From the IMG/VR virus record IMGVR_UViG_3300033182_001174, positions 1 through 57,445 of that record: a stretch of DNA of 57,445 bases; one strand, given 5' to 3'. The position numbers were made by a program, and so were the translations under genes. Origin of the DNA: a virus. The notes below the pieces were generated by a model that saw nothing but the letters and a program-made list of their open reading frames with translations, made no database searches and was not told where the DNA came from. Positions 17,324 through 42,828 of the stretch are shown here, piece after piece; the first letter of the stretch is position 1; each line of letters begins with the position of its first letter.

Positions 17324-20300
17324 ATGTTACCTATGTTAGCAAGAACAACTGGTAGTGCCTTAGCCCGTAACATTACGGGTAAGAGAAAGACAGTGCGAGC
17401 TGGTGCTATCAAACCAAACACTCAGATGATTCCTGATAGAAAGAGTGGTGCATTAGTTAAACAACCAAAATCATCTTCGGCAATCATGAAACCAATGGCA
17501 CCACTCAAGGAGGCCACTGGTTCTGCTGCTAAACCTGCTGCTAAGGATGATTATATGACAATCATTCATAGTAAAGTTCTTGAGATAGAAGGGATTCTCA
17601 AGGGAACATTAGCAGCAGAGAAGGAAGAGCAGAGACAAAAAAGAAAAGCACGAAAGGATGAGGACAAGGCAAACCAAGAAAAGAAACTAGAAGCAAAAGA
17701 CGATAAGCAAGATAAGAAAGGTATTAAGATGCCTAAGGTTCCTCAGGTAGGAATCTTTGGATGGATAAAAAGGTTTATTGGCAATGTAATACTTGGAATA
17801 TTTTTGTCCAAGATGGTTGACTTTGCACCTGCATTGGGTGGATTTATAAAAGCAGCAGATGGTATCACTACATTCTTAGCAGATGTAGGAATAAAATTAG
17901 TTGATGGTCTTGCTACATTTGTTGACTGGGGATACAAAGCATATGATGCAACTCAAGGATTCTTAGAAAACTTTGGTGTTGGTCAAGAACAATTTGATCA
18001 ATTCTCTGGTGCTGTGTCTGGAATGATTGATGCATTGATCATTGCATCAGTCATTCTCGCGGCAAGGGGTGAAGATGGTTTAGGACCTGGTGGTCTTGAC
18101 AAAGCAAGAAGACCTCAAGGACGTACACCTGGTGTAACACAAGGTCGTGGTGGACAAAGACCTAGAATGAGATTTCCTGGCACTGGACCAAGAATAACTC
18201 AGGGTCGTGGTGGTCCACGTCGTCCTGGAGCACCAGTCACTCAAGGTCGTGGTGGTCAAGGAACAAGTCCAAGATTTCCTGGAACAAGACCACCAGTGAC
18301 TGGTGGAGGGACAACTCCAAGACTTCCTAAAGGAACAAAAGGTGGAAAAGGTAATTGGTTACTAAGTTTAATCCTTGCACCATTTGAATTTTTTGGAAGA
18401 AAAGGTGAGGGACAAACCGATCTTCAAGCTGGAGTTGGCACTGCTGGTAGCACTGCTGGTGGATATGCTGGTATGAAAGCAGGTGGTGCATTAGGTGTTA
18501 AAATAGGAGCATTCCTTGGACCTAAAGGTGCATTAGTTGGTGGTATTCTTGGTGGAATAATAGGTGGAATTGTTGGAAGTGTAACAGGTGGAGCAGCAGC
18601 AGATAAGTTAACAGGTGCAGACAAGGTTGGACAATATCAAGAAGGTGGTAGAATTACCAAGAAGTCAAAAGTAAAACGTGGTATTAAAACTAAGAAGAAA
18701 CCAAAGAAATTAAATCTTAGAAAACCAATAAAACAAGATCTCAAAGATCTTCCACCTCCAGCAAAAGGTCAAGAACCTACACAACAGAGAGCATGGTGGG
18801 ACTTCCTTGGTTGGGCTGGCACTGGTCAGAAACAACCACTTGGTCCTGGTGGTGAGATGCTCGCAGAAAAAGTAACCAATGTAGGTAACACTCTTGGTAG
18901 AGATGATTTCTTCGGTCCTGTTTTAAAAGTAACCTCAAAAATTATTTTAGATCAGGAAGTTAACAACATAGATTATCAAAACGTAAGTCGTGGAATTAAC
19001 TTATTACTTAATGAAGGAATTAAAGCAAACAAAGTTGCTCAAGGTGCTTTTAAATATCAAGAGGGTGGGGAAGTATTGCCCATAAAAACTGCGATTGATG
19101 CTGGAAGGTGGATAGAGAGCACTTTTAGATCCACAATTAGAAACAGTTCTGAAAAATCAATCATGCGTTCTGGATCCTCATTTACTAAAAATAAAATGAA
19201 TGAGGCATCAACTGCAGGACCTGGAACTGCTGCTGGAGAAAGAGATTCTGCTTCTGGTGAAATGGTTCCTGGCACTCAAACAGGTTCCACAACTTCAAAA
19301 TTTGGAACGGTAGAGCAAAAGAAGATGCTTGATGCCATTGCTTTTGCTGAAGGAACGACAGGAAGTTATGGAACTCTTTATGGTGGTAGGGTAATAGATG
19401 AACTTGCTGCAGGGGAGATGACAATAGCAGAAGTTCTTAAGATGCAGAAGAGTAAAATGTATAAAGGTGAAAGTGTTTATGGTTCGGGATATGATTCTAA
19501 TGCTACTGGTAGATATCAGTTTATGTCCTATGTCTTAGAGGAAGAGATAGGCAAACAAGGTGCAGATCCCTCTGAGTTGTTCACCCCTGAGATGCAGGAT
19601 AAATTAATTCTCAATAGGATTTCAAGAATGAGAGGAGTTACTCCAGAACTCTTGGCAGCAGAGGGTATGAGTGATAAGGTTATTGATATGTTAGCACCTG
19701 AGTTTGCATCGTTCCCTAACTTGTTTGGTCCAGATGCTCAAGGTAGAGTGGGAACTAATACAAGTTACTATGGTCAGGGGGGCAAGACAGCAGCAGAAAT
19801 TAAAAAAGCATATGGAGATTCCACAGGAGAGTCCTCTGCTATTGAGATAGCAGACACTCAAGCACAACCTACTGCACTTAATATTGAACCGTCATCAATT
19901 ACTCCAGTTGAAAAAGCAAGTGAACCAGTTGGTCCAGCACCTGGTTCTGCAAATGCTGAGAAGGAGGCAATTGCAGGAGCACTTGGTGATTTTATGAAAG
20001 CAAATAGATCTAAGATTGGAGTTACTGGATCTATTCATCAATGGTTACCAAGACATCCACCCAAGAAGGTTAGAACAAGTTATCAATCATGGCATAATGT
20101 GAACAGAGCACTTGATATTGGTGGTTGGTCTCCATCTAGTCCTGAGGGAGGTGGTGCTGATGAACAGGCACCTGTGATTGCTGCATTACTTGAGTGGAAT
20201 AAGAAGAACGGATATAATCCCGTTGAATTAATTCATGGTTCTCCCGCATATAAGAACGTTGGAAGTTATAGAAAGTATCCCGATGTTCACCATCATCATG

Positions 20301-20638
20301 TTCATGTAGCATATGAAAAGGGTGGCATGACTCTTGACAAACCTCATCTTGCCATGTTAGGTGAGAAAGGAAAAGAGATTGTCATCGATAATGATAGTAG
20401 TGTCAGTGAAGTTTCCCCGATGCTTCTGGCAATCAATGCAGCAAAGAACAAACAAGGAGTTTTAGATGCTATTCAAAACTTTGCCCCATATGATGAGAGA
20501 TCAAGCAAAACCATCTCTGTTCAGGAAGAAGAAATGCCTGAAGAGAGTGGTTACGGTGGTCAAGCAAGAGGTGGATTGCTCCCAGTGATGATGGGTTCTC
20601 CAGATAATTCTTTTGACTTCTTAGAATATCAAGGTTAA
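17324..20638 (+). CDS. Tape-measure-like giant tail protein 2 with two peptidoglycan-hydrolase-like domains
   Basis: A 1104-residue protein. N-terminal coiled coil (about 85-140, Lys/Glu-rich), hydrophobic region (145-250), Gly/Arg/Pro repeats (QGRGG copies, about 265-340), a Gly-rich membrane-like segment (375-430). Residues about 660-860 resemble the lambda R transglycosylase fold: LDAIAFAEGT with candidate catalytic Glu676 and GRYQFM at 729-734. Residues about 910-1000 look like an M15/LAS metallopeptidase: SWHNVNRALDI (His924, Asp931) and HHHHVHV (989-995) as zinc ligands. It would be delivered with the tail to open the cell wall, replacing the lysozyme that T4 carries on gp5. It ends in tape-measure-like LAMLGEKGKEIVID. 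Confidence 0.75.
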   Translation: MLPMLARTTGSALARNITGKRKTVRAGAIKPNTQMIPDRKSGALVKQPKSSSAIMKPMAPLKEATGSAAKPAAKDDYMTIIHSKVLEIEGILKGTLAAEKEEQRQKRKARKDEDKANQEKKLEAKDDKQDKKGIKMPKVPQVGIFGWIKRFIGNVILGIFLSKMVDFAPALGGFIKAADGITTFLADVGIKLVDGLATFVDWGYKAYDATQGFLENFGVGQEQFDQFSGAVSGMIDALIIASVILAARGEDGLGPGGLDKARRPQGRTPGVTQGRGGQRPRMRFPGTGPRITQGRGGPRRPGAPVTQGRGGQGTSPRFPGTRPPVTGGGTTPRLPKGTKGGKGNWLLSLILAPFEFFGRKGEGQTDLQAGVGTAGSTAGGYAGMKAGGALGVKIGAFLGPKGALVGGILGGIIGGIVGSVTGGAAADKLTGADKVGQYQEGGRITKKSKVKRGIKTKKKPKKLNLRKPIKQDLKDLPPPAKGQEPTQQRAWWDFLGWAGTGQKQPLGPGGEMLAEKVTNVGNTLGRDDFFGPVLKVTSKIILDQEVNNIDYQNVSRGINLLLNEGIKANKVAQGAFKYQEGGEVLPIKTAIDAGRWIESTFRSTIRNSSEKSIMRSGSSFTKNKMNEASTAGPGTAAGERDSASGEMVPGTQTGSTTSKFGTVEQKKMLDAIAFAEGTTGSYGTLYGGRVIDELAAGEMTIAEVLKMQKSKMYKGESVYGSGYDSNATGRYQFMSYVLEEEIGKQGADPSELFTPEMQDKLILNRISRMRGVTPELLAAEGMSDKVIDMLAPEFASFPNLFGPDAQGRVGTNTSYYGQGGKTAAEIKKAYGDSTGESSAIEIADTQAQPTALNIEPSSITPVEKASEPVGPAPGSANAEKEAIAGALGDFMKANRSKIGVTGSIHQWLPRHPPKKVRTSYQSWHNVNRALDIGGWSPSSPEGGGADEQAPVIAALLEWNKKNGYNPVELIHGSPAYKNVGSYRKYPDVHHHHVHVAYEKGGMTLDKPHLAMLGEKGKEIVIDNDSSVSEVSPMLLAINAAKNKQGVLDAIQNFAPYDERSSKTISVQEEEMPEESGYGGQARGGLLPVMMGSPDNSFDFLEYQG

Positions 20639-20661: not shown

Positions 20662-22014
20662 ATGACACAACAAATATCTACAAAAGCAGCAGATCCTGGT
20701 ATTGTAGAACAGGTAGACATTTATTCTAATGTTGATCCAAGTAAAACTGTTAGCCTTGTCGGAGGTCTTCTTAGTTTCTCCTACATTGAAAGTATAATGA
20801 GTGACACTATCAAAGTGAATCTTTCATTTAGTGATAGTGGTGATAGTATTGATGGTAAAACAGTGACAGAGGGTCTTCCTCTTGTTGGACAAGAGAAAGT
20901 GGTAATAAAATTTGCAGATAATAATGAAAATTTTATTGGAGATACACCTCAATTAGTGATGTATGTTAATAAGATTACTAATGTCGGAGATAGAACACAG
21001 AAATCTGTTATAAATCTTGAACTTGTATCAAAAGAATATATCTTGAATGAAAAGATAAGAGTAACACAAAGATTTGATGGAAAAATATCAGATCATGTTC
21101 AAAAAATTCTAACAGATCAAAAGTATTTGAAGACAGAGAAACCAGTAACAGTAGAAGATACAATCAATGAATATAATTTCTTTGGTAATAATAAGAAATC
21201 ATTTTACACTGTGACTTGGTTGTCGAAGAAAGCAGTTTCCTCTGAGCATCAAAAACTAGGACAGAGTGCTGGATTCTTTTTCTACGAAACTTATGATGGA
21301 TTCTTTTTTAAATCTATCGATGGTCTTCTAAGTCAAGAACCAAAGTTAAAGTTGATCTATAATGAGACACCAGATACCTCAGGTGCAAATATTCCTGATG
21401 GATATGACCAGAAAATTTTAGATTTTCAGAAGAGTAATAATGTAAATGTGCAAGATAAATTAAAGATGGGTGCGTTCTCTACTAGAACAGTTTTGTTTGA
21501 TCCATTTACATGTTTTTATGAAGTCAAAACACCAAACGCAGAGGAATCTCAAGATTCTCTTAAAATGGGTGGTAAAAATTTGTACCTTGCCTCAGAGGAG
21601 TTGAGAAATAAAGAGTTTGATATTCCAGGAGCAAACAAAGAGTTTTCAAGGACACAATATTTTTTACTTGACAGTGGAACAGCTCCTTCGGGTAGCACTG
21701 ATCAACAGATTGAAAAGTCAGCAGAAGAAAACTTTGAGTATGGACAAATTGCAAACCAGTCAGTCATGAGATACAATCAATTGTATTCCATGAGATCTAG
21801 TATTACCATTGCTGGTAACTTTACATTGCGAGCTGGTGATACAATTTACATTGATTCTCCTGGATTGCAGAAGGAAAGGACCCAGGAGGTAGACCACAAA
21901 GATGGCGGTCTATATATTATAACGGATATCTGTCATCAACTTACCTCTGAAGGCACATACACTCGATGCAATTTAGCAAGAGATTCCTTCGGAAGAAAAC
22001 CTAAAAAACGTTAA
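20662..22014 (+). CDS. gp27: Baseplate hub protein gp27-like
   Basis: A 450-residue protein placed between the tape-measure pair and the gp5-like OB protein, as gp27 should be. Segments TVSLVGGLLSFSYIESIMSD, FNFFGNN-type loops and a C-terminal tube-domain ending (AGNFTLRAGDTIYIDSPG, GGLYIITDICHQLT) fit hub proteins that form the trimeric adaptor between spike and tube. It starts at an ATG after AGAGGTAATAATTA. The gp27 label is by architecture and synteny. Confidence 0.75.
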   Translation: MTQQISTKAADPGIVEQVDIYSNVDPSKTVSLVGGLLSFSYIESIMSDTIKVNLSFSDSGDSIDGKTVTEGLPLVGQEKVVIKFADNNENFIGDTPQLVMYVNKITNVGDRTQKSVINLELVSKEYILNEKIRVTQRFDGKISDHVQKILTDQKYLKTEKPVTVEDTINEYNFFGNNKKSFYTVTWLSKKAVSSEHQKLGQSAGFFFYETYDGFFFKSIDGLLSQEPKLKLIYNETPDTSGANIPDGYDQKILDFQKSNNVNVQDKLKMGAFSTRTVLFDPFTCFYEVKTPNAEESQDSLKMGGKNLYLASEELRNKEFDIPGANKEFSRTQYFLLDSGTAPSGSTDQQIEKSAEENFEYGQIANQSVMRYNQLYSMRSSITIAGNFTLRAGDTIYIDSPGLQKERTQEVDHKDGGLYIITDICHQLTSEGTYTRCNLARDSFGRKPKKR

Positions 22015-22020
22015 GGAACT

Positions 22021-22239
22021 ATGTCTGATAGAAGTATTCAACAACACATTAACGATGATAAGGACCTTTTGGAGAACGGAACTCTGTCTCCACAAATGCG
22101 TCGTCATGTAGCAGACGAACTGGATCACCTTGAGCAGTACCAAGCAAATCATCCTGATGATGATCATGACCCAACGTCATTTGAAATGTATTGTGATGAG
22201 AATCCAGAAGCAGATGAATGTAGAATTTACGAGGATTGA
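22021..22239 (+). CDS. cp12: CP12-like Calvin-cycle inhibitor
   Basis: A 72-residue protein whose C-terminus (EMYCDENPEADECRIYED) is the CP12 signature, with the disulfide pair C-x8-C at Cys58 and Cys67; the central helix (VADELDHLEQYQAN) matches the CP12 AWD-VEEL region. CP12 ties GAPDH and phosphoribulokinase into an inactive complex; phage CP12 is thought to divert host carbon from the Calvin cycle to the pentose phosphate pathway, complementing TalC at the start of this window. The N-terminal cysteine pair of plant CP12 is absent, as in some cyanobacterial and phage forms. It is unexpectedly embedded between two baseplate hub genes and overlaps the next start by one base. Confidence 0.9.
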   Translation: MSDRSIQQHINDDKDLLENGTLSPQMRRHVADELDHLEQYQANHPDDDHDPTSFEMYCDENPEADECRIYED

Positions 22240-22820
22240 TGGAAGGAGGAACACTATTTAATCCAGGATTTCTTGGAGCAGCTTTTCTATGGTGGGTCGG
22301 TCAAATTGCTGACGATTCCACTTGGAGAGATAATATCAATGCAGGAAATTATGAGGATGCAGATGGTGTTCCTGGATGGGGTAGAAGATATAAGGTAAGA
22401 ATTATTGGTCTCCATGATCAGGGTGAGGTAGAGATTCCTTCTGATCAGTTACCATGGGCAAACGTAATGTATCCCATCACTGCTGGTGGATTCCAAACAA
22501 ATAGTGGAGCAACACCACAACTTCGTCAAGGAAATATGGTGTTTGGATTCTTTCTTGATGGACAGGATCAACAAGTTCCTGTCATCATGGGAGTTTTAGG
22601 TAACAACTCTCAGACACAACTGTCTCAAGTTATTGGTGATGATTCTGTTACCAATGCTCAGGCAGGTAGTATTGCAAGAAGTGGATACTCTACTGGAGCA
22701 AGATCCAAAGGTGCTGCGACCGAAGTTGCACCAGATCAAGATTTAGTAATTAAACAACCTGCGAGAAGGAGAAGAGGACAAGGTGGTAGAGGTGGAGATA
22801 CTGTGAGGAGGGTAGCATGA
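22239..22820 (+). CDS. gp5: gp5-like baseplate OB-fold protein
   Basis: A 193-residue protein starting MEGGTLFNPGFLGAAFLWWVGQI. It contains a gp5/VgrG-like OB-fold (GWGRRYKVRIIGLHDQGEVE, LPWANVMYPITAGGF, LRQGNMVFGFFLDGQDQQVPVIMGVLG) and a basic tail (ARRRRGQGGRGG). No lysozyme domain follows, unlike T4 gp5, consistent with the hydrolase domains being on the tail protein at 17324. The ATG overlaps the cp12 stop (TGATG); an upstream TTG at 22236 is unlikely. The stop overlaps the next start by ATGA. Confidence 0.8.
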   Translation: MEGGTLFNPGFLGAAFLWWVGQIADDSTWRDNINAGNYEDADGVPGWGRRYKVRIIGLHDQGEVEIPSDQLPWANVMYPITAGGFQTNSGATPQLRQGNMVFGFFLDGQDQQVPVIMGVLGNNSQTQLSQVIGDDSVTNAQAGSIARSGYSTGARSKGAATEVAPDQDLVIKQPARRRRGQGGRGGDTVRRVA

Positions 22821-24145
22821 CACAAACACCTTTTGATGCAGATGCTGCAAATGATAGAAAAAATGCAAGTGTTGATCGATCATTAGAGGCAACTCTTGCT
22901 AGAGAAGAGGCAGCAACAAATGCTGCTCTTGAAGCCGAGGCACAAAGACAGGCGCAACAACAGCAACAGCAAGAGGATAATGCAGAGGCAGGACCAGGTG
23001 CTGCACCAGAACCAGGTGCCACTCTTGAAAACGAAGGTGTTCATCACATCACTGCTGGTGATGTAAAGAGGCAGGAAAAATGTGAAGAGAAAATAGTTTT
23101 AATGAAACCAGACGAACCTGTCATGTCTGCTATGAAAGGCATTCAAACTGCCATTGAAAATATGACTAGAAAAATTGACAAATATCTTCAAGCAATTCAA
23201 AGTTATGTGGATGCAGTTTCTAGTGTAATTAACGACATTAAGAAACTTATATCAGATATTGCACGGGAAATTGCAAAATACATGAAGATTATCATGGACA
23301 AGATCATGGAATATGTCCTAAAGATTTTAAACAAAGGTCTTACTGCAGTTGTTGCTGCATTGCCATCTAGTTTAAGATATCAATTTGGTGATATGAAGGA
23401 GGTTTTTACTGAACTCATTCTTTGTCTTTACAATAAAATGATGGATGGTATGGGTGAAACAATTGCTGGTGCAATAACAGATGCTATCAATCCAGATCAA
23501 CTTGAGAAAAATGCTAATGATAGAGCAAACAATGGGCAAGATGCAAACGGGCAACTGAATGGTGCTCAAACAAGTCCACAAGTATCACCATGCTATGCTG
23601 ATGAATTAGTCAGTCAAGTTCTTTCAAGTAAGAGATCTCAGATAGATGATGCTAACAATAATTTAGTCGATAATATGAATGCATATCTTGAAGATGTCAC
23701 AGGGACATTATCAGGTATTAGTGGAGCACTTCAAGAGGGTCAGGATGCACTTGGAAACTTGGGTGATATTACAAACATGATTCCAGATATTTCTGGTGGA
23801 ATGGCAGCTGCATTAAATTTTACCAATATAAAGTTGAATGTATTTGGTTGTGAGTTGCAACCAAACATGGCAATATCAGATTTTTATACCTTCTGTAATG
23901 CAGGTGGTGCAGCACCCGCAGCAAAAACACCAAGCACTGCTGCTGTTGCAGAAAATGTAGAGAATGCACCAGCAGCACCTGCAGTAGAACCTGTTCCATT
24001 TGCAGAAGTTCCTAAGGATGCACCTGATGTTGATAATACAACTGCTGGTCAAAGTGATCCTATTGGAGCAGACATTGACGCAGAACTTGAAAGAGCTAGA
24101 GCAGGTGATAGATCTGGTCTTGATGATGCTCTTGATATCATCTGA
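22817..24145 (+). CDS. Baseplate/hub-associated structural protein
   Basis: A 442-residue protein coupled to the gp5-like gene (ATGA). Layout: Ala/Gln/Glu-rich N-terminus with a polyglutamine run (QAQQQQQQED), a long helical region with heptad character (about 100-190: IQTAIENMTRKIDKYLQAIQ, ISDIAREIAKYMKIIMDKI), a polar middle and a Pro/Ala-rich C-terminal tail. By position it is probably part of the central hub or spike complex. No enzyme motif. Confidence 0.65.
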   Translation: MTQTPFDADAANDRKNASVDRSLEATLAREEAATNAALEAEAQRQAQQQQQQEDNAEAGPGAAPEPGATLENEGVHHITAGDVKRQEKCEEKIVLMKPDEPVMSAMKGIQTAIENMTRKIDKYLQAIQSYVDAVSSVINDIKKLISDIAREIAKYMKIIMDKIMEYVLKILNKGLTAVVAALPSSLRYQFGDMKEVFTELILCLYNKMMDGMGETIAGAITDAINPDQLEKNANDRANNGQDANGQLNGAQTSPQVSPCYADELVSQVLSSKRSQIDDANNNLVDNMNAYLEDVTGTLSGISGALQEGQDALGNLGDITNMIPDISGGMAAALNFTNIKLNVFGCELQPNMAISDFYTFCNAGGAAPAAKTPSTAAVAENVENAPAAPAVEPVPFAEVPKDAPDVDNTTAGQSDPIGADIDAELERARAGDRSGLDDALDII

Positions 24146-24180: not shown

Positions 24181-27100
24181 ATGTCATTCAACGTATTCGG
24201 TCCCACTACTGGCAAAGATGTTAGAGTCGGATACATTTCGACAGAAAGAGGATATGTCACAGGTCTCACTGTCTTAGAAGCAAATCAACACGCCTTTAAA
24301 AATCCAGGTACTCAGTTTATTCTGACAACCAGAGATAAGACAAGATATTTAAACATTAATGAAGTAAATAAATTAACAAAGGAAGATCTTTTACCCAAAA
24401 ATAATGCAGCACAAGGAACTTGCGATGGTATAACGGGATTAGATCCTTCAGATACTAAACCAACCCCACCAACTGTCGTCATCAGTGGTGGTGGAGGAGT
24501 TGGTGCTGTTGGAAATCCTGTGATAGGAGAGGATGGATCTTTATTAGATATTATTGTTACTAACGGTGGTTATGGTTATGCGGTTCCACCACAAGTTTCA
24601 TTTGTAGATCCAGATAGATTTGGATCTGGAGTGGTAGCAAATGCAACTATTGGATTAACTACAACTACTATTTTAGAAGAGTACACTGCTGAAGATGAAT
24701 TTGAAGAATATAATTTTTCTCCTGACGGTTCAGAACTTTCTGGATATGGATCTGTAGTTGACGTTGATGGTCAAACAATTGGTGATTGGGATCCAACATT
24801 ATATACATCCTTTGAACAAGACCCTATTGGAATTGAGATTGCAAGGTATCAACAAATTTTAAGTGAAATTGATAATCCTTGGTGGCATACAAGAAAAGAG
24901 ACACCATTGTCTGTGACATTCCTTGACAAAACAACTAGAGTTGTTCATGAGGTTAAGCACCCAGAGTGGGCTAGAGCATTAACAAAGAAAAAAACTGATA
25001 CAACAAACACATCGAATACCACAAGCACAGTAAGCACAGAGTTTACTGAAGTTGAATTTGAAATCTATACTCAAGGAAATCGAGATGCGAGGCAGACCTT
25101 AACATTTAATTTTATTGCTGAGGATAACTCTCACAAACTTCAGTTTAAAGCATCTAATTATAGAGAAGAGAAGAAAACTAAAGTCACTAAAAGAATAAAG
25201 AAAAATACAAAATATAAAGTTGTTTCTACTGGATCTCACAGAGGTAAAGGTACTGAACAAGGTCTTGTTGCTGGCATTGGAAGAAAACCAAAGGAAATTA
25301 AAGGGAACAAAAAAGGATCTGTAATTTTTGCGGACTTTGTTAAGTCCGCAAATGATAATGATGACTTACAAATCAGAGCAACTAAAGGTATATTTACTGC
25401 AGATAGATTACCTGAAAAACCTGAGGGTCATAGTACATATGCTTTAACATATGAATTGAAAGATGATTCTGTCTCTAAAGCCCGTAAAACTAAACCATCA
25501 ACTAAAATTGTAAAGACAGAAGTAGACAGCTTCATGAATAAGTATGCTGTCTGTCCTACATCAATGTCTAATGTTCCTGGTAGTGACTATGCTGGTAGAA
25601 TTTGTACCTTTGAGTGGGAGGAGGACTTTCCGATAACTGGAGATTATATCTTCAGAGGCATGGCAGATAATATCAGTAAGGTTTATATTGATAATGATAT
25701 TATCATGCAACCCAAACATTTTAGAGGATATCCTCTTCCTAAAGATATTGTCAAAAAAACTATAGAATCTGGTCCACATAGAATTAAAATTGATTTATAT
25801 AATATTCCAATACTCGAACCCAAACCTCAGGCATCTGGACCACAAGATCTAACTATTACATATCATGGATTGAATCGTGGTTCTAGTATAAAAGTTTCTG
25901 AAGAAAGAGTATATCCAATTAAAGTAGCAGATCGTGGAAAATTAGGTAGGGGTAATAATGCTGCAGTTAAATCTGTTTCTAATAAGACAATTAAATTTAC
26001 AGATTCGACCAGTCAAAATGATACTGATGCAGAATTCAAGATCGTATCACCATCACCTGGAGTAAGTGCTAAATTTAGAGGAAGTAATGATAACAATCTT
26101 GAGTTAGTTGTCAAGGGAAAAGGGGATGTTACCCTTCGATTGGAATGGAATGATGACCCAAGGAGAAATGGTGAGGCAGTTGGCAACATCAAAGTCGCTG
26201 GTGAGACGTGGAAACAGAGAGCATTTAAAGATAAAAAAGGAGATGTAGAGAAAACTATCAATGTAGGATTTAAAGAAACTAAAGAGGTGGTGGGAAAAGG
26301 TGGATATATCGTTAGTGGTGATAAGAAAGAAGTTAGAATGAAGGATGGTCATGGTGATGACATCAACTCTACATTTTCAATCCAAGATTCTACAAATAAT
26401 GCCAGATTCTCTAATGATGGAAAGAGATTAATAACTGATGGTCCTGGTAACGTTGTATTAAGATTACAATGGAATGATAATCCCAAAACTGCGGGAGTTG
26501 CTGTAGATAAAATTGAGGTTGGTGGTGTAGTATTGGATCAAAGACGTGAAAAAGGTAGAGTTACAAAAACTCTTGTCGTTAAAGGTAGTTCATCATCAAG
26601 CAAGTCATCCAGTAATAGTCAAAGTCCTGGTATGATTTTCAACACCATTGATTATATTAAAAAAGCAGACAGGAAACTTTGGAGAACAAACGTATTTAAT
26701 CGTGGTGGATTCCTGAACGATTATGGTGTTTGTCCTTTTGACACCAGAAAGGTTTTAGATGATAACCCATATGGTGGTACTCATGTAATACGTTGGGAGC
26801 ATGTAACTTTCCCTGCTGATGGTAACTATAAAATTACAGTTGATTGTGATGATAGGGTAAAACTATTCATTGGCAATAGAACTGGTTCAGGTGCCATTGG
26901 AATTGGCAACGGACTAAAAGATATTGAGGAGGGTGGTGATGAAGTAATTATTGAAAATGGTATGGATAAGAAAACCTATACCAAATTCTTTAAGAAAGGA
27001 CAGTATCGGATTAGAGCAGAACTCTATCAGAAACCTGGTGGTAGGTTTGGTTTTGGTACAGATGGTCGTGCAGAACTTTCAGCAAGATTTTCAAAGCAGG

Positions 27101-30030
27101 GAAATGATCTCTTTTTAGTCGTCGATGGTAATGGCACGGGAACGATTAATTTCAAATTAAGAACAGATGATAATCCAAGGGCTAAGGGAAATGCTCTTAC
27201 TCAATTACAAATTGGTGGTGTTACTTTAAAAAGAACTAGAGATAGAAATAGAGGATTTAAAGAGAAAGAAGTTATAACTGGGTCTGGCACATTTACTGGA
27301 GGACAAAAATATAAAATTGTTGTAAGAGGTTCTTCTCCTACGTCAGGAAGTGTTATTCGTGGAGGAGGAGATAGAATAGTATTTGATGATGATATTGGTA
27401 ATGGAGTTGATATGAATGCAGAATTGACTCTTGGTCGGATAAAAGATGTTAAATCTTCTCCAGTCAAAGGATTAAATCCAATGGCTCTTGCGATGACTAT
27501 CGAGGGACAGGCTGCTGAAGAAAAGAAAATCTCTTCTAGATCTTGGCATCAAAATCCATTTGGAGCAGCACTTACAATTGAAGCACCACTACCACCGATA
27601 CCAGAATCTCCTAGAGTTCTTGCAGAAGGTAGATGTCCAGAGAATCCTACCTGGACAACTAGATTCTCAGGTGGACAAGAAAAATGGTGGCCAGTGACAC
27701 ATCGTCGTGCTGATGGTTCAAGAACATGGTCTAAGTTTATGAATAGATATGCGATCTCACCCATCCCACCACTTGCACAGAAAGGAACAGATGGTTCTGG
27801 TATAGTGTATACTAATAGTTGGACCATTGATGTACCGTACAGTGGATTCCATGCAATGAAAGGAACAGTTGATAATGGAGGTAGAGTATTAGTTGATGGT
27901 CAGGTAATCCTTCAAGGAGGATACTTCTCTGGTGCAAAGTTTGCAGGTAGTGTAAGAACTTTAGAGGGATTTGGTTCAGTATCTCCTAAACTTAAAAAAT
28001 TCTACCTAGAAAAAGGGAGTCATACCATTACAGTTGAAGTTGAGAATCGAGATCATTCCACGAAAAAAATTGTTGAAAAGAAAATCTTTACCACTAAAGA
28101 TTGGATTAAACCAGTTAAGGAAGGTTCTCCAGCTCCAACAGAACTCACAGTTGAGTATAGAGGATTGAATCAAGGGATTACCAAAACAGATACTGGTGAA
28201 AAAAGATATCCAATTAGAGTGGCAAACCCTGGATCTTTGGGTAGAGGACCTACTGCTAAAGTTAAATCTGTTTCTAAAAAGACAATTAAATTTACAGATG
28301 CGGCTTATCAGGATGATACTGATGCAGAGTTCAAAATTTTATCACCATCACCTGGAGTAAGTGCTAGATTTAGTGGGAGTAATGATGGCAACCTTGAATT
28401 AGTTGTTAAGGGGAAAGGAGATGTTACTCTTCAATTGGAGTGGGATGATGACCCAAAACGTAATGGAGAGGCAGTTGGTAACATTAAAGTTGCTGGTGAA
28501 ACATGGAAACAAACAGCATTTAAAGATAAAAAAGGAGACGTTAAGAAAACAATTAACGTAGGATCTAAAGAAACTAAAGAGGTAGTCGGTAAGGGTGGTT
28601 ACATCGTCAATGGAAAGAGAGACGAGGTTAGAATGAAGGATGGTCATGGTGATGACATCAACTCAACCTTTAAAATTGAAAGTTCAACTGTCGATGCAAA
28701 GTTTTCTTCAGATGGTAAGAGAATTGAATACAAAGGGTCTGGTACGATTACCCTTAAATTATTCTGGGATGATAATCCACGTACAGCTGGTGTTGCTGTT
28801 GATAGTATTGCCGTGGGTGGTAAAGTTTGGAATCAGAAAGGAACAAAAGGATCAAAAACTCAGACCATCAATGTAACATCTCAAAGTCCTGCAGAAGCTG
28901 CAGTAAAGGGTGGACAGAAAATTGGTGGAGTCACATATGAAGGTCCTCCATTATTCAACTTTAAGCACAGGCTTTGGAGTGACTTTATGAATAGTAATAG
29001 TGTGTCTCCATTCTTAGGAATTTCATTGGATGAGGATAATGACACCATCACTGGCACAAGAACATACATTTGGAAAAATGTTAACTTCCCTGAAACTGGT
29101 AGATATAAAATTTATTTTCAATCAGATGATCAAGCAGATCTTTTCATCGACGGCAATTTAACGAAAAAATCTAGAGGATTTAGAGGAGATCCAGAGGAGA
29201 CATATGCTGAAATTACCACGGGAAATTATGAGGTAAAAGTTGTATGTAACAATCTTAATTTTGCTGGTCGTAATAGATTTAGAAACAACCCTACTGGATT
29301 TGCTGTGAGAATTTTGAAAGACATCACGGTTCGAGGTGAAGGTCAGTCGTGGACAAACAATCCTGTGGGAATATCTGCTATACTGATTCCACCTCCATGC
29401 CCAAAAGTTATTGAAGGAAAAGGAAGGGTTGAAGATATTATTGTAAGACAACCAGGAAATGGATTCATTGCTCCTCCAGGAGAGGGATTCCCTACGATTG
29501 TAACTGTGAAGGATGTTGATATTACTAGTCCTGGTATTAATTATAGTACAGATGATGTTGCTTTAATTGATGGTATTCCTGTTCCAATTGTTGTTGATAA
29601 TTTTGGTAGAATCCAGTCCATAGATCCTACTGCTGGAGGTTCAATTTCTGTGACAAGATATCCTAGTCTCACCGTTCCATCCAGAACTGGAGCTGGGTTC
29701 AGAGGTAATCCTATCATGACAACATCAATTGTCCCTGAGGATGTATTTGATGAAGATCAAATCCTCCAAGTTACCGATCTGGTTGGACTCAAACAAACTG
29801 GTTATGTCAATGGAAAACCATATTATGGATCTGTTTTTGCCAAAGATGGACAGTTGTTTGCTGGAATTTATGAGACAATTGGAGAACTCATTCCAGTTTA
29901 TGCTACTCTACAAGAGAGTATTGATGCTAGAATTACAACCAGACCTTCTGCAATCCTTAGACAGGGTACAGATGTCACTAGCAATGATCCTAGACTTAAT
30001 ATTCCAGGAACTCCCCAAAATCTTATCTAG
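24181..30030 (+). CDS. Giant virion protein with PA14-like and duplicated beta modules
   Basis: A 1949-residue structural protein starting MSFNVFGPTTGKDVRVGYIS. Four related modules share the pattern F-[ML]-N-x-[YN]-[AGS]-[VI]-[CS]-P followed by a beta-sandwich with a W-x-x-x-x-F/V-P-x-x-G-x-Y type motif and a DD-x-V/A-x-L-F-I-D/G-like strand, reminiscent of PA14 carbohydrate-binding domains (starting near nt 25527, 26707, 27735 and 28981). Between them lies a duplicated segment of about 240 residues. The N- and C-terminal parts contain IIVTNGGYGYAVPPQV-like beta motifs. It is most likely a baseplate-attached fibre or side-spike with receptor- or glycan-binding potential. Function is inferred. 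Confidence 0.72.
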   Translation: MSFNVFGPTTGKDVRVGYISTERGYVTGLTVLEANQHAFKNPGTQFILTTRDKTRYLNINEVNKLTKEDLLPKNNAAQGTCDGITGLDPSDTKPTPPTVVISGGGGVGAVGNPVIGEDGSLLDIIVTNGGYGYAVPPQVSFVDPDRFGSGVVANATIGLTTTTILEEYTAEDEFEEYNFSPDGSELSGYGSVVDVDGQTIGDWDPTLYTSFEQDPIGIEIARYQQILSEIDNPWWHTRKETPLSVTFLDKTTRVVHEVKHPEWARALTKKKTDTTNTSNTTSTVSTEFTEVEFEIYTQGNRDARQTLTFNFIAEDNSHKLQFKASNYREEKKTKVTKRIKKNTKYKVVSTGSHRGKGTEQGLVAGIGRKPKEIKGNKKGSVIFADFVKSANDNDDLQIRATKGIFTADRLPEKPEGHSTYALTYELKDDSVSKARKTKPSTKIVKTEVDSFMNKYAVCPTSMSNVPGSDYAGRICTFEWEEDFPITGDYIFRGMADNISKVYIDNDIIMQPKHFRGYPLPKDIVKKTIESGPHRIKIDLYNIPILEPKPQASGPQDLTITYHGLNRGSSIKVSEERVYPIKVADRGKLGRGNNAAVKSVSNKTIKFTDSTSQNDTDAEFKIVSPSPGVSAKFRGSNDNNLELVVKGKGDVTLRLEWNDDPRRNGEAVGNIKVAGETWKQRAFKDKKGDVEKTINVGFKETKEVVGKGGYIVSGDKKEVRMKDGHGDDINSTFSIQDSTNNARFSNDGKRLITDGPGNVVLRLQWNDNPKTAGVAVDKIEVGGVVLDQRREKGRVTKTLVVKGSSSSSKSSSNSQSPGMIFNTIDYIKKADRKLWRTNVFNRGGFLNDYGVCPFDTRKVLDDNPYGGTHVIRWEHVTFPADGNYKITVDCDDRVKLFIGNRTGSGAIGIGNGLKDIEEGGDEVIIENGMDKKTYTKFFKKGQYRIRAELYQKPGGRFGFGTDGRAELSARFSKQGNDLFLVVDGNGTGTINFKLRTDDNPRAKGNALTQLQIGGVTLKRTRDRNRGFKEKEVITGSGTFTGGQKYKIVVRGSSPTSGSVIRGGGDRIVFDDDIGNGVDMNAELTLGRIKDVKSSPVKGLNPMALAMTIEGQAAEEKKISSRSWHQNPFGAALTIEAPLPPIPESPRVLAEGRCPENPTWTTRFSGGQEKWWPVTHRRADGSRTWSKFMNRYAISPIPPLAQKGTDGSGIVYTNSWTIDVPYSGFHAMKGTVDNGGRVLVDGQVILQGGYFSGAKFAGSVRTLEGFGSVSPKLKKFYLEKGSHTITVEVENRDHSTKKIVEKKIFTTKDWIKPVKEGSPAPTELTVEYRGLNQGITKTDTGEKRYPIRVANPGSLGRGPTAKVKSVSKKTIKFTDAAYQDDTDAEFKILSPSPGVSARFSGSNDGNLELVVKGKGDVTLQLEWDDDPKRNGEAVGNIKVAGETWKQTAFKDKKGDVKKTINVGSKETKEVVGKGGYIVNGKRDEVRMKDGHGDDINSTFKIESSTVDAKFSSDGKRIEYKGSGTITLKLFWDDNPRTAGVAVDSIAVGGKVWNQKGTKGSKTQTINVTSQSPAEAAVKGGQKIGGVTYEGPPLFNFKHRLWSDFMNSNSVSPFLGISLDEDNDTITGTRTYIWKNVNFPETGRYKIYFQSDDQADLFIDGNLTKKSRGFRGDPEETYAEITTGNYEVKVVCNNLNFAGRNRFRNNPTGFAVRILKDITVRGEGQSWTNNPVGISAILIPPPCPKVIEGKGRVEDIIVRQPGNGFIAPPGEGFPTIVTVKDVDITSPGINYSTDDVALIDGIPVPIVVDNFGRIQSIDPTAGGSISVTRYPSLTVPSRTGAGFRGNPIMTTSIVPEDVFDEDQILQVTDLVGLKQTGYVNGKPYYGSVFAKDGQLFAGIYETIGELIPVYATLQESIDARITTRPSAILRQGTDVTSNDPRLNIPGTPQNLI
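25861..26586 (+). repeat. Internal duplication, copy 1
   Basis: In-frame segment of about 725 bases that recurs at 28144-28877 with roughly 80% identity by eye. Shared protein landmarks: KFTD, DTDAEFKI, SPSPGVSA, GNIKVAGETWKQ, FKDKKGDV, MKDGHGDDINSTF and TAGVAVD. Confidence 0.8.
28144..28877 (+). repeat. Internal duplication, copy 2
   Basis: Second copy of the module at 25861-26586. Many differences are silent, so the protein sequence is kept more than the DNA, suggesting purifying selection on both copies after an old duplication or repeated exchange. Confidence 0.8.
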
Positions 30031-33264: not shown

Positions 33265-33270
33265 TTTTTT

Positions 33271-33355
33271 GGGAGTGTGGCGGAATCGGTAGACGCACCA
33301 GACTTAAAATCTGTTGATTGTAAAGATCGTGGGGGTTCAAATCCCCCCACTCCCA
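33271..33355 (+). tRNA. tRNA-Leu (anticodon UAA)
   Basis: An 85-base cloverleaf with a type II variable arm: acceptor GGGAGTG / CACTCCC, anticodon stem CAGA / TCTG around CTTAAAA (anticodon TAA), T arm GGGGG-TTCAAAT-CCCCC. CCA is not encoded. A weak ACCCCA/TGGGGT hairpin follows at 33358-33380. Confidence 0.95.
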
Positions 33356-33397
33356 TTACCCCACTAAATAAAGTTGGGGTTTCTCAATGGTATTCTA

Positions 33398-33674: not shown

Positions 33675-33748
33675 GCCAACTTAGCTCAGCTGGATAGAGC
33701 AGGGTTTTTGTAAAGCTCAGGTCATCGGTTCAAGTCCGATAGTTGGCT
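33675..33748 (+). tRNA. tRNA-Thr (anticodon UGU)
   Basis: A 74-base cloverleaf: acceptor GCCAACT / AGTTGGC, D stem GCTC / GAGC, anticodon loop TTTGTAA (anticodon TGT), T arm ATCGG-TTCAAGT-CCGAT. CCA is not encoded. Confidence 0.93.
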
Positions 33749-34036: not shown

Positions 34037-37000
34037 ATGGGTCTTTCCAGATTAGATAATTTTCTGAAGTCTTCGCGTGGTACTATTCTTTATGTTGATC
34101 CTAACAGTCTTGATGCGACTGATAGCATAGAAAATAGAGGAAATTCATTAACACGTCCTTTTAAAACTATTCAACGTGCCTTGGTGGAGGCAGCAAGATT
34201 TTCCTATCAGAGAGGACTGAATAATGATAGATTTGGTAAGACGACCGTCTTGCTGTATCCAGGTGACCATGTAGTTGATAATAGACCTGGATGGATACCA
34301 GATGGAGCAAATAATTTTAGATTGAGGGATGGTTCTACCTCTACAGATTTGACTCCATTTGATCTGACTTCTAATTTTGACTTACAAACAACAGATAATG
34401 AACTCTATAAGCTTAATAGTATACATGGTGGAGTAATTCTTCCCAGAGGTACATCTATTGTTGGTCTTGATCTTCGTAAAACAAAGATTAGACCAAAATA
34501 TGTTCCAGACCCAACTAATAACAATATTGAAAGGGGTGCATTATTCCGTATTACTGGTGGATGTTATCTTTGGCAGTTCTCCATGTTTGACGGAGATCCA
34601 AATGGGGTTGTTTATAAAGATTACACTGCAAACACTTTTGTTCCTAACTTTTCTCACCATAAACTCACCTGTTTTGAATATGCAGATGGTCTGAATGGTG
34701 TATCTGTCAACGATGTTTTCCAAACATACACTACGTCCAGAACGGATCTGGATATGTATTATGAGAAAGTTGGAATAGTATATGGTCAATCTTCAGGTCG
34801 TCCCATTGAACCTGATTATCCTTCAACTTCACTAGATATTCAACCTAAGATTGACGAATATCGTATTGTTGGATCAACAGGTGCTAGTGTGGGCATTTCC
34901 AGCATTAAAGCAGGAAATGGTGTCACTCCAACCACCACGATCACAGTAACTACCACTAGTGCTGTTCCTGGATTGGATGTTGATACTCCTTTCCAAGTAA
35001 GTGGAATTAGTGCATCAGGATATGACGGTAAGTTTGTTGTATCTGAAAAAGTAAGTGATACAGAGATTAAATATACAGTTCAAAATGCTCCCGCAGTAGC
35101 ACTTCCAACTGCAACTGGATCTACACTGGCACTTTCATCTGATACTGTAACTGGTGCATCTCCATACATCTTCAACATCTCTCTGAGATCTGTCTTCGGT
35201 ATGTGTGGTATGCACGCTGATGGATCTAAGGCAACTGGATTTAAATCCATGGTTGTTGCCCAGTTTACTGGTATTGGATTACAAAAAGATGATGCTGCAT
35301 TTGTAAAATATAATGAAAATACACCACCAACAGGTAATTATGATGATAATACTGTTTCTGGTAATGAAAACCTTAGTAGCAATTCAAAAGCACGATATAA
35401 ACCATCTTACAGAAACTTCCACGTAAAGGTATCAAATAATTCCTTCATTCAGGCAGTTTCGATCTTTGCTATTGGATTCTCTGAGCATTTTGTAACGGAG
35501 AATGGTGGTGACATTTCACTGACCAACTCAAACTCCAACTTTGGTGCAAATGCTCTAACCTCTGTTGGTTTTAGAACTGATGCATTTTCTCAGGATGATA
35601 TTGGATATATTACACATATTATTCCACCTAAAGAAGTTTCTTTAACAGAATCTGCTATTGAATTTGATGCGATTGACGTAACAAAAACCGACTCTGTTGC
35701 TGGTGTTGGATCAACTGGAAATCTTTATCTCCTCAATAGATCTAATGTGGATCTTCCACCAGAAAACGTAATCGAAGGTTATAGAATTGGTGCAAGATCT
35801 GAAGATAAATTAAAAGTTTTAATTAATGAAGGTGGCACTACAACAGAGCATTTTGCTCGTATTGTCATGCCTGACAATACAGAATCACCTTCTAAGAGTG
35901 CTGAAAAGTCCTTTAAGGTTAATAGAAGTATTGCTGGTATCAATAGTATTGGTCAGTATAGTGATGGCAGTAAGACAAATCAAATAACATTAACTGAGGC
36001 ACATAACTTCTTAAATGGAGAATCTGTCAGAGTCATTGGTGATACTGGACAGATTCCTGATGGATTAACTCCAAATACAATATTCTATGCGATTACAACA
36101 TCAACTGGTATTACTACCAACACAAATATTAAACTTGCAAAAACTTTAAATGATGCAATCAATGATAGTGCAATTAATATTAACGAAAAAGGTGGTGCTT
36201 TAAGAGTTGTTAGTAGAGTTTCTGATAAAAACGCAGGAGATCTTGGTCACCCAATTCAATATGATACTACTAATAGTCAGTGGTATGTTAAAGTTTCTGG
36301 GGCTTCCACTGAAAACTCAATTTATAGAACAATTGTTTCTCTGGGCACGACTGCCCTTGGATCTGCCACACCAAGAACCTTCATCAATAGAAGAACCGAT
36401 GCAAGATCTGGTTTAGATAAAACATATAGAATGAGATATGTCATTCCTTCTAATGTTGGGGGAGCTGTTGGTAGACCTCCTGTTGAAGGATTCATCATTC
36501 AAGAATCAAACACATCTATTGGTTCAACTGATGGTGAGATTCAAACTTACTTCGGTAGTGGGGATCTTGCAAACATTAATCAGCAGAGAAACTTTAGATT
36601 CATTGCTGATGCAAATTGGTCTTCTGCAACAGCTAACATTATTACAGAACTCCCACATAATCTGAAGATTGGTTCTCAAGTTGAAATTAACAATATCATC
36701 AGTACGGGTAATACCGCAGGAGTGGGCAACTCTGGATTCAATGGAATCTTTAATGTCACTGGTATTGCTAGTGCAAAACAATTTAGCGTTGGATTGACAA
36801 CGAATCCTGGAACCTTTGATACTAACACTTCCAATAGAACAACAGATTTACCATATTACAAACGTAAGAAGTATTCTGATACTTATTATGTGTATAGACT
36901 TTCTGAAGCTCAGAAGTATATCACTGGAGAGCAAGATGGTGTATACTACATTAGTGTTCTTAACGCATCAAATACACCAACAGTAGCACCATTTACTGCT

Positions 37001-39949: not shown

Positions 39950-42828
39950 TGGAGAATAATAATTTTAGAGGGATTCCAACATCCCTATTTCTCAACGGAC
40001 CAACTCTGGGGATTGTTACTGATCCCCAGAGTGTATCAAACGTCATAGGAATTGCAACATTTACGGGTATTGCAACAGCAACATTTACTGATACTAATTT
40101 TGATTTTGATAGTGTATCTAGTGGATCTATTGAATTTAAGTGGTATTTTGATGGATCTAGAATTTTAGATAGTAGTGAAGATAGCAATAGTAACGCGAGA
40201 ATTAGGAGTTTTGATTCTCCAACAGGCACTGGATCTACAATACAAATTACTGGTTTAGATGTAGGTGATGATAGTAAGGAAATTTATTTTGAAGCAGATT
40301 ATATACCCAGTGCCTACCAAAGTTCTTCACCTGTAACTGCAGGAACTGCAAGATCAACAGGAAATGCACTTAATGAACCACTACAATCTGGTATTGGAAC
40401 AATATCTGTATTTCCAATTATTGATATCACCACTCAACCAACAGGTCAGTTAGTATCTGTTGGTGATGATGCAAAGTTTTCTATTGCAGCACAAAAAACT
40501 CCTGGTGGTGGCACAGTAAATTATCAGTGGCAACTTAATGGAACTGACTTGTCTGATGGGACATCAAATACAAATGTTTTTACTGGAGCATCAGGCACAC
40601 CGACATTAACGATTAATGACGGAACAACTGATGTTGAAGTTGATTTTTCTAAGGTGTCCGTATATGATACATTTACACCTGGAGTAACTTATACTGCCAC
40701 TGCAAATGCAGACATAACTGTTAAATTAATTGCAGAAGGTGGTGGAGGAGGTGGATCAGGATTTAGAAATGTTACTGGAAGTAAAGGTGGCAGAACAGAA
40801 GGAACATTTACTTTTTTAGAAGGACAAACATACATAATTCAAGTTGGTGAAGCAGGTCAAGACGGAGCAACTCTTGGACAAGGTGCAGCTACAGCTAAAG
40901 GGGGAAAACCTGGTGGTGGTGATGCACCATCTTTCAATACTAGTTTTAATAGATCTGGTGGAGGTGGTGGATACACAGGAATTTTCATTACTTCAGTCAC
41001 TCAGGCAAATGCTATTTTAATTGCTGCTGGAGGAGGTGGTTCATCAGGAGACCCAGGTGTAGGTGGTGATGGTGGTGGATTAGAAGGTAATGCCGGAGGA
41101 AACCAAGGAGGTGGTAGAGCTGGTTTAGGTGGAACACAAACTGCTGGTGGTCAATCTGGATCCAACTATACTGCTGGAGAGGCTGGTTCAGCTTTGAAGG
41201 GTGGAAGTGGAGCTAATGCTGGTAATGGTGCAGGTGGTGGTGGAGCTGGTTACTTTGGTGGTGGTGGTGGAACAACTGGTGGACCTGGAACTGGAGGAGG
41301 TGGATCTAGTTATCTCCATCCAACATTAATTACTAATGGAACAACAACCACTGGTGGTTCTACTCAAGGAGTTGAACAGGATGGTACACTTTTAATTGAA
41401 CTAATTTCTGCAGTAAAATCTGTAACAACAACTGTCACTGGAGCAAATTCACCAAACCTTACAATTAGTTCAACTGGGTCTGGTATTGCTGGTATTAGAT
41501 GTAAAGTCAGTGCAACTGGTGTTCAAGAATCACCAAGATTCTCAAACACTGTCAGTTATGTTGTTGTAGAACCAAGATCACTGCTTGAGATTGAAACTTA
41601 TAACTACACAAATGCAACTGCAACACTCTCAGAGTTTGACTTAGCTAATGGTGACTTGACGATTGACTATGCATCATACACTGGAAATGCAGTATGCTTG
41701 TATGCAGGTGACAAGGATATTGAGATTGAGATGGAAATGTATGGTGGAAAAGGACCTACGGCAACAGCTGGTGTTGGTGCTGATGGTGGAGATGGTGGAT
41801 ATTCTAAGATTAGATTTACTATGGAGAGAGATGTAGAACATGTGTTGACTGGATTATTCTCTGCAGTAAATGCACCATTCCTTTATAGAAAAGCATCCTT
41901 AATCGCATGTGTTGGTGCAGGTGGTGCAGGTGCTCCATCAGGCGGAAATGCCGGTGGTCAAGGAGGTGGAATCGGTATTGCTGGAGAAGCAGGTCCAAAT
42001 AGAGAAGGTGGAAGTGGTGGTCCAGTTGTCCAAGCAGGACAGGGAACTTTAACAGGTATATTTGGTGGCAATTTTGACGGTCCAACATTAACTGGTGGAC
42101 TCGTCCCACCCGACATACAAAGAGGTGTCAACTCACAGGCAGGTAATAGTATAATATGTGCCAGAGGAGTTTATTGGAGAAATCAGGGAAAAGCACCTTG
42201 CGATGATGTTGGGACCGTTAAGTTCAGAACTCCAGATGGAACAGAAATATCTAATACTGCAACGATTGAAAGAGGATACAAATCTGGATATAATGTAATT
42301 CAGACAGCAGGAGGTGGACGGAACGACAAATCTGGAGATGGTGGGTGTGGTTTCACTGGTGGAGGTGGTGGAGATAATCGTGGTGGTGGAGGCGGATCAG
42401 GTTATACTGATGGATCTGTAACGGTTGTTGACACTCAACTTGGTGGTAGTGATGGTGATGCAAAAGTTATTATTCGTATTGCTGATCCAAGTTTAATTGC
42501 TCCAGCAACAACTCTTGAGACCGTAACATTTACTGTTACTAGAGAAGCAGCATTTAGTAATATAATTACTTTTGCAAAAGAAAGTGGTAATGGTCCAGAA
42601 AAACTTATATTTGGACCTAATGCAGGAACTGTTACTGTTTCACTTGCAAGAGGTGCTGTATATAATTTTGAATCAAAGAGTGTAAACGGTGATACTAATA
42701 GGGGTTCAATACGATTAAGTAATGGTGTGCTTCAGTTTGAAGATGCTGGTGATAATGACTTTAATGACTTAACTGTAACACCTAATTCTGGTCAATTTGT
42801 CAGTGCGACACGTTATCAGTTCGTATAA
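39949..42828 (+). CDS. Glycine-rich tail adhesin with Ig-like region
   Basis: A 959-residue protein. An Ig-like segment (TTQPTGQLVSVGDDAKFSIA, NYQWQLNGTDLSDG) is followed by two glycine-rich domains (about residues 260-470 and 590-830) in which GGGG-x runs alternate with short beta motifs such as LIAAGGGGSSGD and CVGAGGAGAPSG. Such domains resemble the polyglycine-helix brushes of T4-like gp38 adhesins (phage S16) that display recognition loops. The C-terminus (GSIRLSNGVLQFEDAGDNDF, NDLTVTPNSG) is a calcium-binding-like beta domain. Likely a distal adhesin coupled to the giant fibre. Confidence 0.72.
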   Translation: MENNNFRGIPTSLFLNGPTLGIVTDPQSVSNVIGIATFTGIATATFTDTNFDFDSVSSGSIEFKWYFDGSRILDSSEDSNSNARIRSFDSPTGTGSTIQITGLDVGDDSKEIYFEADYIPSAYQSSSPVTAGTARSTGNALNEPLQSGIGTISVFPIIDITTQPTGQLVSVGDDAKFSIAAQKTPGGGTVNYQWQLNGTDLSDGTSNTNVFTGASGTPTLTINDGTTDVEVDFSKVSVYDTFTPGVTYTATANADITVKLIAEGGGGGGSGFRNVTGSKGGRTEGTFTFLEGQTYIIQVGEAGQDGATLGQGAATAKGGKPGGGDAPSFNTSFNRSGGGGGYTGIFITSVTQANAILIAAGGGGSSGDPGVGGDGGGLEGNAGGNQGGGRAGLGGTQTAGGQSGSNYTAGEAGSALKGGSGANAGNGAGGGGAGYFGGGGGTTGGPGTGGGGSSYLHPTLITNGTTTTGGSTQGVEQDGTLLIELISAVKSVTTTVTGANSPNLTISSTGSGIAGIRCKVSATGVQESPRFSNTVSYVVVEPRSLLEIETYNYTNATATLSEFDLANGDLTIDYASYTGNAVCLYAGDKDIEIEMEMYGGKGPTATAGVGADGGDGGYSKIRFTMERDVEHVLTGLFSAVNAPFLYRKASLIACVGAGGAGAPSGGNAGGQGGGIGIAGEAGPNREGGSGGPVVQAGQGTLTGIFGGNFDGPTLTGGLVPPDIQRGVNSQAGNSIICARGVYWRNQGKAPCDDVGTVKFRTPDGTEISNTATIERGYKSGYNVIQTAGGGRNDKSGDGGCGFTGGGGGDNRGGGGGSGYTDGSVTVVDTQLGGSDGDAKVIIRIADPSLIAPATTLETVTFTVTREAAFSNIITFAKESGNGPEKLIFGPNAGTVTVSLARGAVYNFESKSVNGDTNRGSIRLSNGVLQFEDAGDNDFNDLTVTPNSGQFVSATRYQFV

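What the first reader, a model, noticed from the sequence alone, without database searches (positions are those of the whole stretch)
17324..20638. Tail protein with two different cell-wall hydrolase-like domains
The second tape-measure-like protein carries a lambda-R-like transglycosylase segment (AFAEGT with Glu676, GRYQFM) and, 250 residues later, a LAS/M15-like zinc site (His924, Asp931, HHHHVH). The gp5-like protein of this phage lacks a lysozyme. Both glycan and peptide cross-links could be cut during entry by one injected protein.
Basis: partly seen in the sequence, partly recalled or inferred. Interest (0 to 1): 0.6.

Follow-up and report, generated by a model that had tools for sequence, protein, structure and literature searches.

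The report
Two-enzyme wall-cutter in cyanophage tail
A tail protein of an ocean virus of photosynthetic bacteria carries two different wall-cutting enzymes, one for the sugar strands and one for the peptide links; such two-enzyme tail proteins are already known, but in this virus family the enzymes have been swapped repeatedly and sit away from the spike where the textbook relative T4 keeps its cutter.

Summary
ORF 17324-20638 (1104 aa, here X2) has Glu676 in AFAEGT, GRYQFM, His924/Asp931 and HHHHVH at the stated places. The first domain (aa 659-832) is a lambda-R-type transglycosylase (GH104): profile E 2.6e-16, predicted fold Z 15. The second (aa 882-1001) is a LAS-type zinc peptidase, more divergent and not a classical Pfam M15. 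The gp5-like spike indeed lacks a lysozyme, as do nine other cyanophage gp5 proteins, most annotated 'tail lysozyme'. X2 and its neighbour X1 hold the wall enzymes instead. The LAS domain stays while its partner swaps among GH104, SleB-like, Phage_lysozyme2 and glucosaminidase modules, or the two enzymes are split between X1 and X2. Slot relatives have been found in virions by mass spectrometry. Best reading: a virion-carried two-blade peptidoglycan cutter used at entry. Bifunctional tail hydrolases are known (cyanophage A-1(L) hub gp15, diffocin, phi29 gp13), so this is a new variant of a known kind. Activity, timing, injection and the tape-measure role are inferred, not shown.

The parts
17324..20638 (+). 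X2: 1104-aa tail protein with two wall-hydrolase domains
   Evidence: ORF; synteny gp26 - X1 - X2 - T350 tail protein - gp5 in relatives
17363..18091 (+). Conserved N-terminal region of X2 (aa 14-256), matches phrog_35997; this family matches 43 of 51 relatives
   Evidence: hydrophobic stretches aa 142-175 and 226-249
18503..18601 (+). Gly-rich hydrophobic segment (aa 394-426), of the kind seen in tape measure proteins
   Evidence: hydropathy; weak PHROG tail-lysin hit over aa 249-459
19298..19819 (+). GH104-type (lambda R-like) transglycosylase domain, aa 659-832; AF2 model pLDDT 92
19349..19351 (+). Codon of Glu676, aligned with the Glu of the SEGT motif of lambda lysozyme; invariant in 43 domains
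19967..20326 (+). LAS-type zinc peptidase domain, aa 882-1001; AF2 model pLDDT 84
20093..20116 (+). His924-x6-Asp931: predicted zinc ligands 1 and 2
   Evidence: invariant in 51 proteins; same spacing as VldE H301/D308
20288..20305 (+). HxxHxH (His989, His992, His994): LAS HxH motif with third zinc ligand and probable catalytic His
   Evidence: invariant in 51 proteins; VldE H373-x-H375
20327..20635 (+). C-terminal tail of X2 (aa 1002-1104), conserved independently of the swapped module
   Evidence: aligned at 60-65% identity in L018 and L098
14470..17316 (+). X1: neighbouring tail protein, short N-terminal similarity to X2 (E 2e-4); no hydrolase domain found here, but its counterparts carry one in other phages
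20662..22014 (+). T350 tail protein (phrog_350), downstream marker gene of the slot
22236..22820 (+). gp5-like spike, N-terminal part: Gp5 OB fold only, no lysozyme
22817..24145 (+). gp5-like spike, C-terminal part in another frame; no lysozyme domain

Best explanation
X2 is a virion tail protein of a T4-like marine cyanophage, probably packed in the tail tube or at the baseplate hub as one of two tape-measure-like proteins. It carries a GH104 lytic transglycosylase that cleaves the MurNAc-GlcNAc glycan strand (Glu676) and a LAS-type zinc peptidase that cleaves the stem peptide or cross-link (His924, Asp931 and His994 holding zinc; His992 assisting). After sheath contraction the domains reach the periplasm and open a local hole in the peptidoglycan so that the tube can reach the inner membrane. 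It replaces the lysozyme that T4 carries on spike gp5. Shown here: domain identity, conserved residues, gene position, absence of lysozyme in gp5, module exchange. Inferred: catalysis, exact bond, timing at entry, location in the virion, tape-measure role.
For: GH104 profile vs lambda lysozyme E 2.6e-16 and vs A-1(L) baseplate hub 8kea E 3.5e-11; model Z 15.2 and 14.6 to the same two, next unrelated row 7.5. LAS ligands invariant in 51 proteins; fold list led by LAS enzyme VldE Z 7.8, with ChiX 5.5, LysECD7 5.3, 1lbu 4.8, MepA 4.7, Hedgehog 4.6. Fixed position between gp26/X1 and T350/gp5 in many phages. In S-CREM2 the X1 and X2 slot proteins were in virions (73 and 71 peptides; PMC10665884) and X2 there has a partial GH104 match plus a T4-type lysozyme; S-SCSM1 virions held both slot proteins (PMC9602691). 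gp5 of the window and of nine cyanophages: no lysozyme domain. A cyanophage hub with lysozyme-like, endoglucanase and peptidase domains had hydrolytic activity that mutations reduced (PMC10966104).
Against: No activity measured. The LAS fold match is below the Z 8 noise line on its own. The A-1(L) domain homologous to GH104 ('lysozyme', aa 56-265) was not one of the two domains reported active. The tape-measure role rests on size, position, hydrophobic segments and similarity to X1, plus one annotation in a Pelagibacter phage. The window is a 57-kb fragment, so a separate endolysin elsewhere cannot be excluded.
Confidence: 0.8

Rival explanations
1. The two domains serve host lysis at the end of infection (a tail-gene-encoded endolysin) rather than entry.
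For: Annotations of slot relatives as 'endolysin'; S-SCSM1 authors leave entry or release open; the GH104 founder lambda R is a lysis enzyme (general knowledge).
Against: The domains are fused into about 1000-aa proteins with hydrophobic N-terminal regions in the tail gene cluster; slot relatives are abundant in virions.
Confidence: 0.1
2. X2 is a hub-bound baseplate enzyme that stays outside, like A-1(L) gp15 or the diffocin hub-hydrolase; it is not a tape measure and is not injected.
For: The A-1(L) hub and the diffocin hub carry paired enzyme domains; X2 lies next to hub genes gp26, T350 and gp5.
Against: No hub barrel domain detected in X2 by profile search; hydrophobic and Gly-rich segments fit an internal tail protein better; the T350 protein is a better hub candidate.
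Confidence: 0.3
3. The LAS domain is a degenerate, non-catalytic zinc or wall-binding domain (as in vertebrate Hedgehog, its best sequence hit).
For: Best sequence matches are Hedgehog N-domains, which act mainly as signals and not as peptidases (general knowledge).
Against: All ligands and the HxxHxH motif are invariant in 51 divergent phage proteins; the same slot pairs a glycan cutter with other recognised peptidases (M23, VanY, M15_3) in other phages.
Confidence: 0.07

Closest known systems
Cyanophage A-1(L) baseplate hub gp15 (PDB 8kea, PMC10966104)
   Same: Cyanophage tail protein with sugar-cutting plus peptide-cutting domains; its 'lysozyme' domain is a GH104 relative of this one (E 3.5e-11, Z 14.6)
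   Different: Domains flank a hub barrel; three enzyme domains; phage of Anabaena; X2 has no recognised barrel
Bacteriophage lambda endolysin R (GH104)
   Same: Fold, catalytic Glu in SEGT/AEGT, GRYQ motif
   Different: Lambda R is a free lysis enzyme; here it is a module of a tail protein
VldE / TM4 tape-measure motif 3 (LAS, clan MD)
   Same: Top fold match of the peptidase; H-x6-D and HxH spacing; MT3 occurs inside a tape measure protein and cuts peptidoglycan (PMC11667670, PMC1796659)
   Different: About 14% identical; TM4 is a mycobacteriophage; no GH104 partner known to us
T4 gp5 tail lysozyme
   Same: Job: open peptidoglycan at entry
   Different: On the spike and a T4-type lysozyme only; cyanophage gp5 lacks it
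phi29 gp13 and diffocin hub-hydrolase
   Same: One tail protein with a glycan cutter and a peptidase
   Different: Other enzyme families (M23 or NlpC/P60) and Gram-positive hosts
Slot proteins of S-CREM2, S-SCSM1, S-RIM2, Sf-CH5, ACG-2014f, S-SZBM1
   Same: Same gene slot; wall enzymes; in S-CREM2 and S-SCSM1 detected in virions by mass spectrometry
   Different: Other enzyme pairs (T4 lysozyme+M23, glucosaminidase+M15_3, GH19) or split over X1 and X2

Membership tests
GH104 lambda-type lytic transglycosylase | Sequence profile similarity to lambda R | tested here: met
   E 2.6e-16 to 3d3d and 2.8e-16 to 1am7
GH104 lambda-type lytic transglycosylase | Single catalytic Glu at the end of helix 1 | tested here: met
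   E676 invariant in 43 domains and aligned with the Glu of lambda SEGT
GH104 lambda-type lytic transglycosylase | Fold | tested here: met
   Z 15.2, rmsd 2.2, 135 aligned residues to 1am7; unrelated rows at 7.5 or less
GH104 lambda-type lytic transglycosylase | 1,6-anhydroMurNAc products | not testable with these tools
   needs muropeptide analysis
LAS / clan MD zinc peptidases | H-x6-D and HxH zinc site | tested here: met
   H924, D931 and H992-x-H994 invariant in 51 proteins; VldE H301, D308, H373-x-H375
LAS / clan MD zinc peptidases | LAS fold | tested here: inconclusive
   Best rows are VldE Z 7.8, other LAS enzymes 4.5-5.5, mixed with unrelated folds
Pfam Peptidase_M15 families | Score above Pfam cut-off | tested here: not met
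   No hit for the window protein at E 1 or for its LAS domain alone at E 5; one of 13 domains reaches PF08291 at E 0.18, one of 51 proteins PF13539 at 0.0059
Tape measure protein | Long tail protein with hydrophobic segments encoded beside baseplate hub genes | tested here: met
   1104 aa, segments 142-175, 226-249, 394-426; synteny
Tape measure protein | Length sets tail length | not tested
   Only a hint: S-CREM2, with a 418-nm tail, has X1/X2 of 1565/1456 aa
T4 gp5 tail lysozyme | Phage_lysozyme domain in gp5 | tested here: not met
   Window gp5 ORFs and nine cyanophage gp5 proteins: Gp5 OB or nothing relevant, no PF00959

The most novel reading that the evidence does not exclude
In the T4-like marine cyanophages (Kyanoviridae) the entry lysozyme has moved as a rule from spike gp5 to the two tape-measure-like proteins X1 and X2, which act as an exchangeable holder for usually one glycan cutter plus one peptide cutter. 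The cutters are swapped between phages faster than the holder, possibly tracking host wall chemistry. Support: 19 changes of partner type on the LAS tree (minimum 4; starred branches alone force several); the window's GH104 is 84% identical to one in an otherwise unrelated slot protein; 16 of 18 phages sampled by the neighbouring gene T350 have a hydrolase in X1/X2; T4-type lysozyme itself sits in X2 of Sf-CH5 and ACG-2014f.
Probability: 0.5. Interest if true: 0.62.

Novelty: new variant of a known kind. Interest (0 to 1): 0.45.

Why it matters
It says where marine T4-like cyanophages most likely keep their wall-opening enzymes, shows that the routine 'tail lysozyme' label on gp5 is unsupported by a lysozyme domain in those tested, and offers a natural series of swapped enzyme modules in one fixed protein context. 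That makes testable whether tail enzymes match host peptidoglycan and affect host range at the entry step.

Tried and rejected
Pfam and NCBIfam scans found neither domain in the window protein; only profiles built from homologues did. Single-sequence PDB searches gave noise: the GH104 segment hit an unrelated LacI-type protein, and the LAS segment hit proteins with His tags because HHHHVH looks like one. First clustering of the partner modules lumped them through shared flanks and was replaced by domain profiles. Ascertainment: IMG/VR loci were fetched by GH104 or LAS, so the 71 of 93 pairs with both activities is biased upward; the set sampled by T350 gives 16 of 18 with at least one enzyme and 6 of 18 with both, a lower bound because only locally built profiles were used. 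Considered and rejected: chance motifs and a wrong reading frame. A decayed lysozyme in gp5 was not searched for beyond Pfam.

Full report
Observation. ORF 17324..20638 on the + strand encodes 1104 aa. Nothing in Pfam matches the full protein at E 1; PHROGs gives only an unknown family for the N-terminus and a weak 'tail associated lysin' match.

First domain. Homologues from IMG/VR gave a 43-sequence alignment in which E676 and Q732 are invariant. Its profile finds lambda lysozyme at E 2.6e-16 and, at 3.5e-11, the baseplate hub of cyanophage A-1(L). The AF2 model (pLDDT 92) matches lambda lysozyme at Z 15.2 and the A-1(L) hub at 14.6, with everything else at 7.5 or less. This is a GH104-type transglycosylase domain.

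Second domain. Across 51 full-length proteins the invariant residues include S922, H924, R928, A929, D931, H989, H992, H994. No Pfam M15 model matches the window domain. Sequence profiles reach only Hedgehog N-domains (E 0.003), themselves LAS members. The AF2 model (pLDDT 84) is closest to VldE, an LAS l,d-endopeptidase (Z 7.8), then other LAS enzymes at 4.5-5.5. VldE's zinc ligands H301, D308, H375 and its HxH motif have the same spacing; its catalytic domain is named after motif 3 of the TM4 tape measure protein, which has peptidoglycan-hydrolysing activity. LAS membership is well supported by the site, less so by the fold; bond specificity is open.

Neighbourhood. The order gp26 - X1 - X2 - T350 - gp5 is kept in relatives and in isolates such as Bellamy, S-SM2 and S-SCSM1. 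X1 and X2 share a short N-terminal similarity. The window's gp5 has a Gp5 OB domain and no lysozyme; nine cyanophage gp5 proteins, most labelled 'tail lysozyme', likewise have no lysozyme domain.

Module exchange. Of 64 LAS-bearing proteins, 15 have GH104, 13 SleB-like, 12 Phage_lysozyme2, one glucosaminidase and 23 no recognised partner domain (Pfam support). On the LAS tree the partner label needs 19 changes, minimum 4; the tree is short and partly unresolved, but starred branches alone force several. The closest LAS domain (L098, 84% identical) has no GH104, while a GH104 84% identical sits in L019, an otherwise unrelated protein in the same slot. Many proteins without a partner have it in the neighbouring gene: LAS in X1 with GH104 in X2, or GH104 or SleB in X1 with LAS in X2. 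Among isolates, Sf-CH5 and ACG-2014f have T4-type lysozyme plus M23 in X2, S-RIM2 glucosaminidase plus M15_3, S-SZBM1 LAS in X1 and GH104 in X2.

Function. Slot proteins of S-CREM2 (73 and 71 peptides) and S-SCSM1 were detected in virions. With the A-1(L) hub precedent, whose endoglucanase and peptidase domains hydrolysed host cells, an entry role is most likely. Whether X2 is injected or stays at the hub, and whether it is a tape measure, cannot be settled here.

Verdict. The principle of paired hydrolases in one tail protein is known; the GH104+LAS combination in this slot and the exchange of modules make it a new variant.

Noticed in passing
window 22236-24145: The gp5-like spike is split into two overlapping ORFs in different frames (ATGA overlap), while relatives such as L098 have both parts in one frame; natural split or assembly frameshift.
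   Followed up: partly
window 24181-30030: 1949-aa protein after gp5 with a PA14 domain, probable fibre or adhesin; different parts of it match the same stretch of relatives, suggesting internal repeats.
   Followed up: no
window 34037-42828: 1970-aa ORF without any Pfam hit, followed by a 959-aa ORF with a Gly-rich ALK/LTK-like region and a weak Ig match; likely tail fibres.
   Followed up: no
window 48305-48985: ORF with a NUMOD3 motif, typical of homing endonucleases.
   Followed up: no
window 33270-33356 and 33675-33748: tRNA-Leu(taa) and tRNA-Thr(tgt); several cultured cyanophages carry tRNA-Leu and tRNA-Thr genes downstream of gp5.
   Followed up: no
L176 618-5312: S-CREM2 X1 carries a GH19 chitinase-type domain, another wall-enzyme class in the X1 slot.
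   Followed up: partly
L198, L199: In Pelagibacter phage HTVC008M and Methylophilales phage Melnitz-2, T350 is not preceded by X1/X2; a large gene on the opposite strand beside gp51 and gp26 (annotated putative tail tape measure in HTVC008M) may take the place.
   Followed up: no
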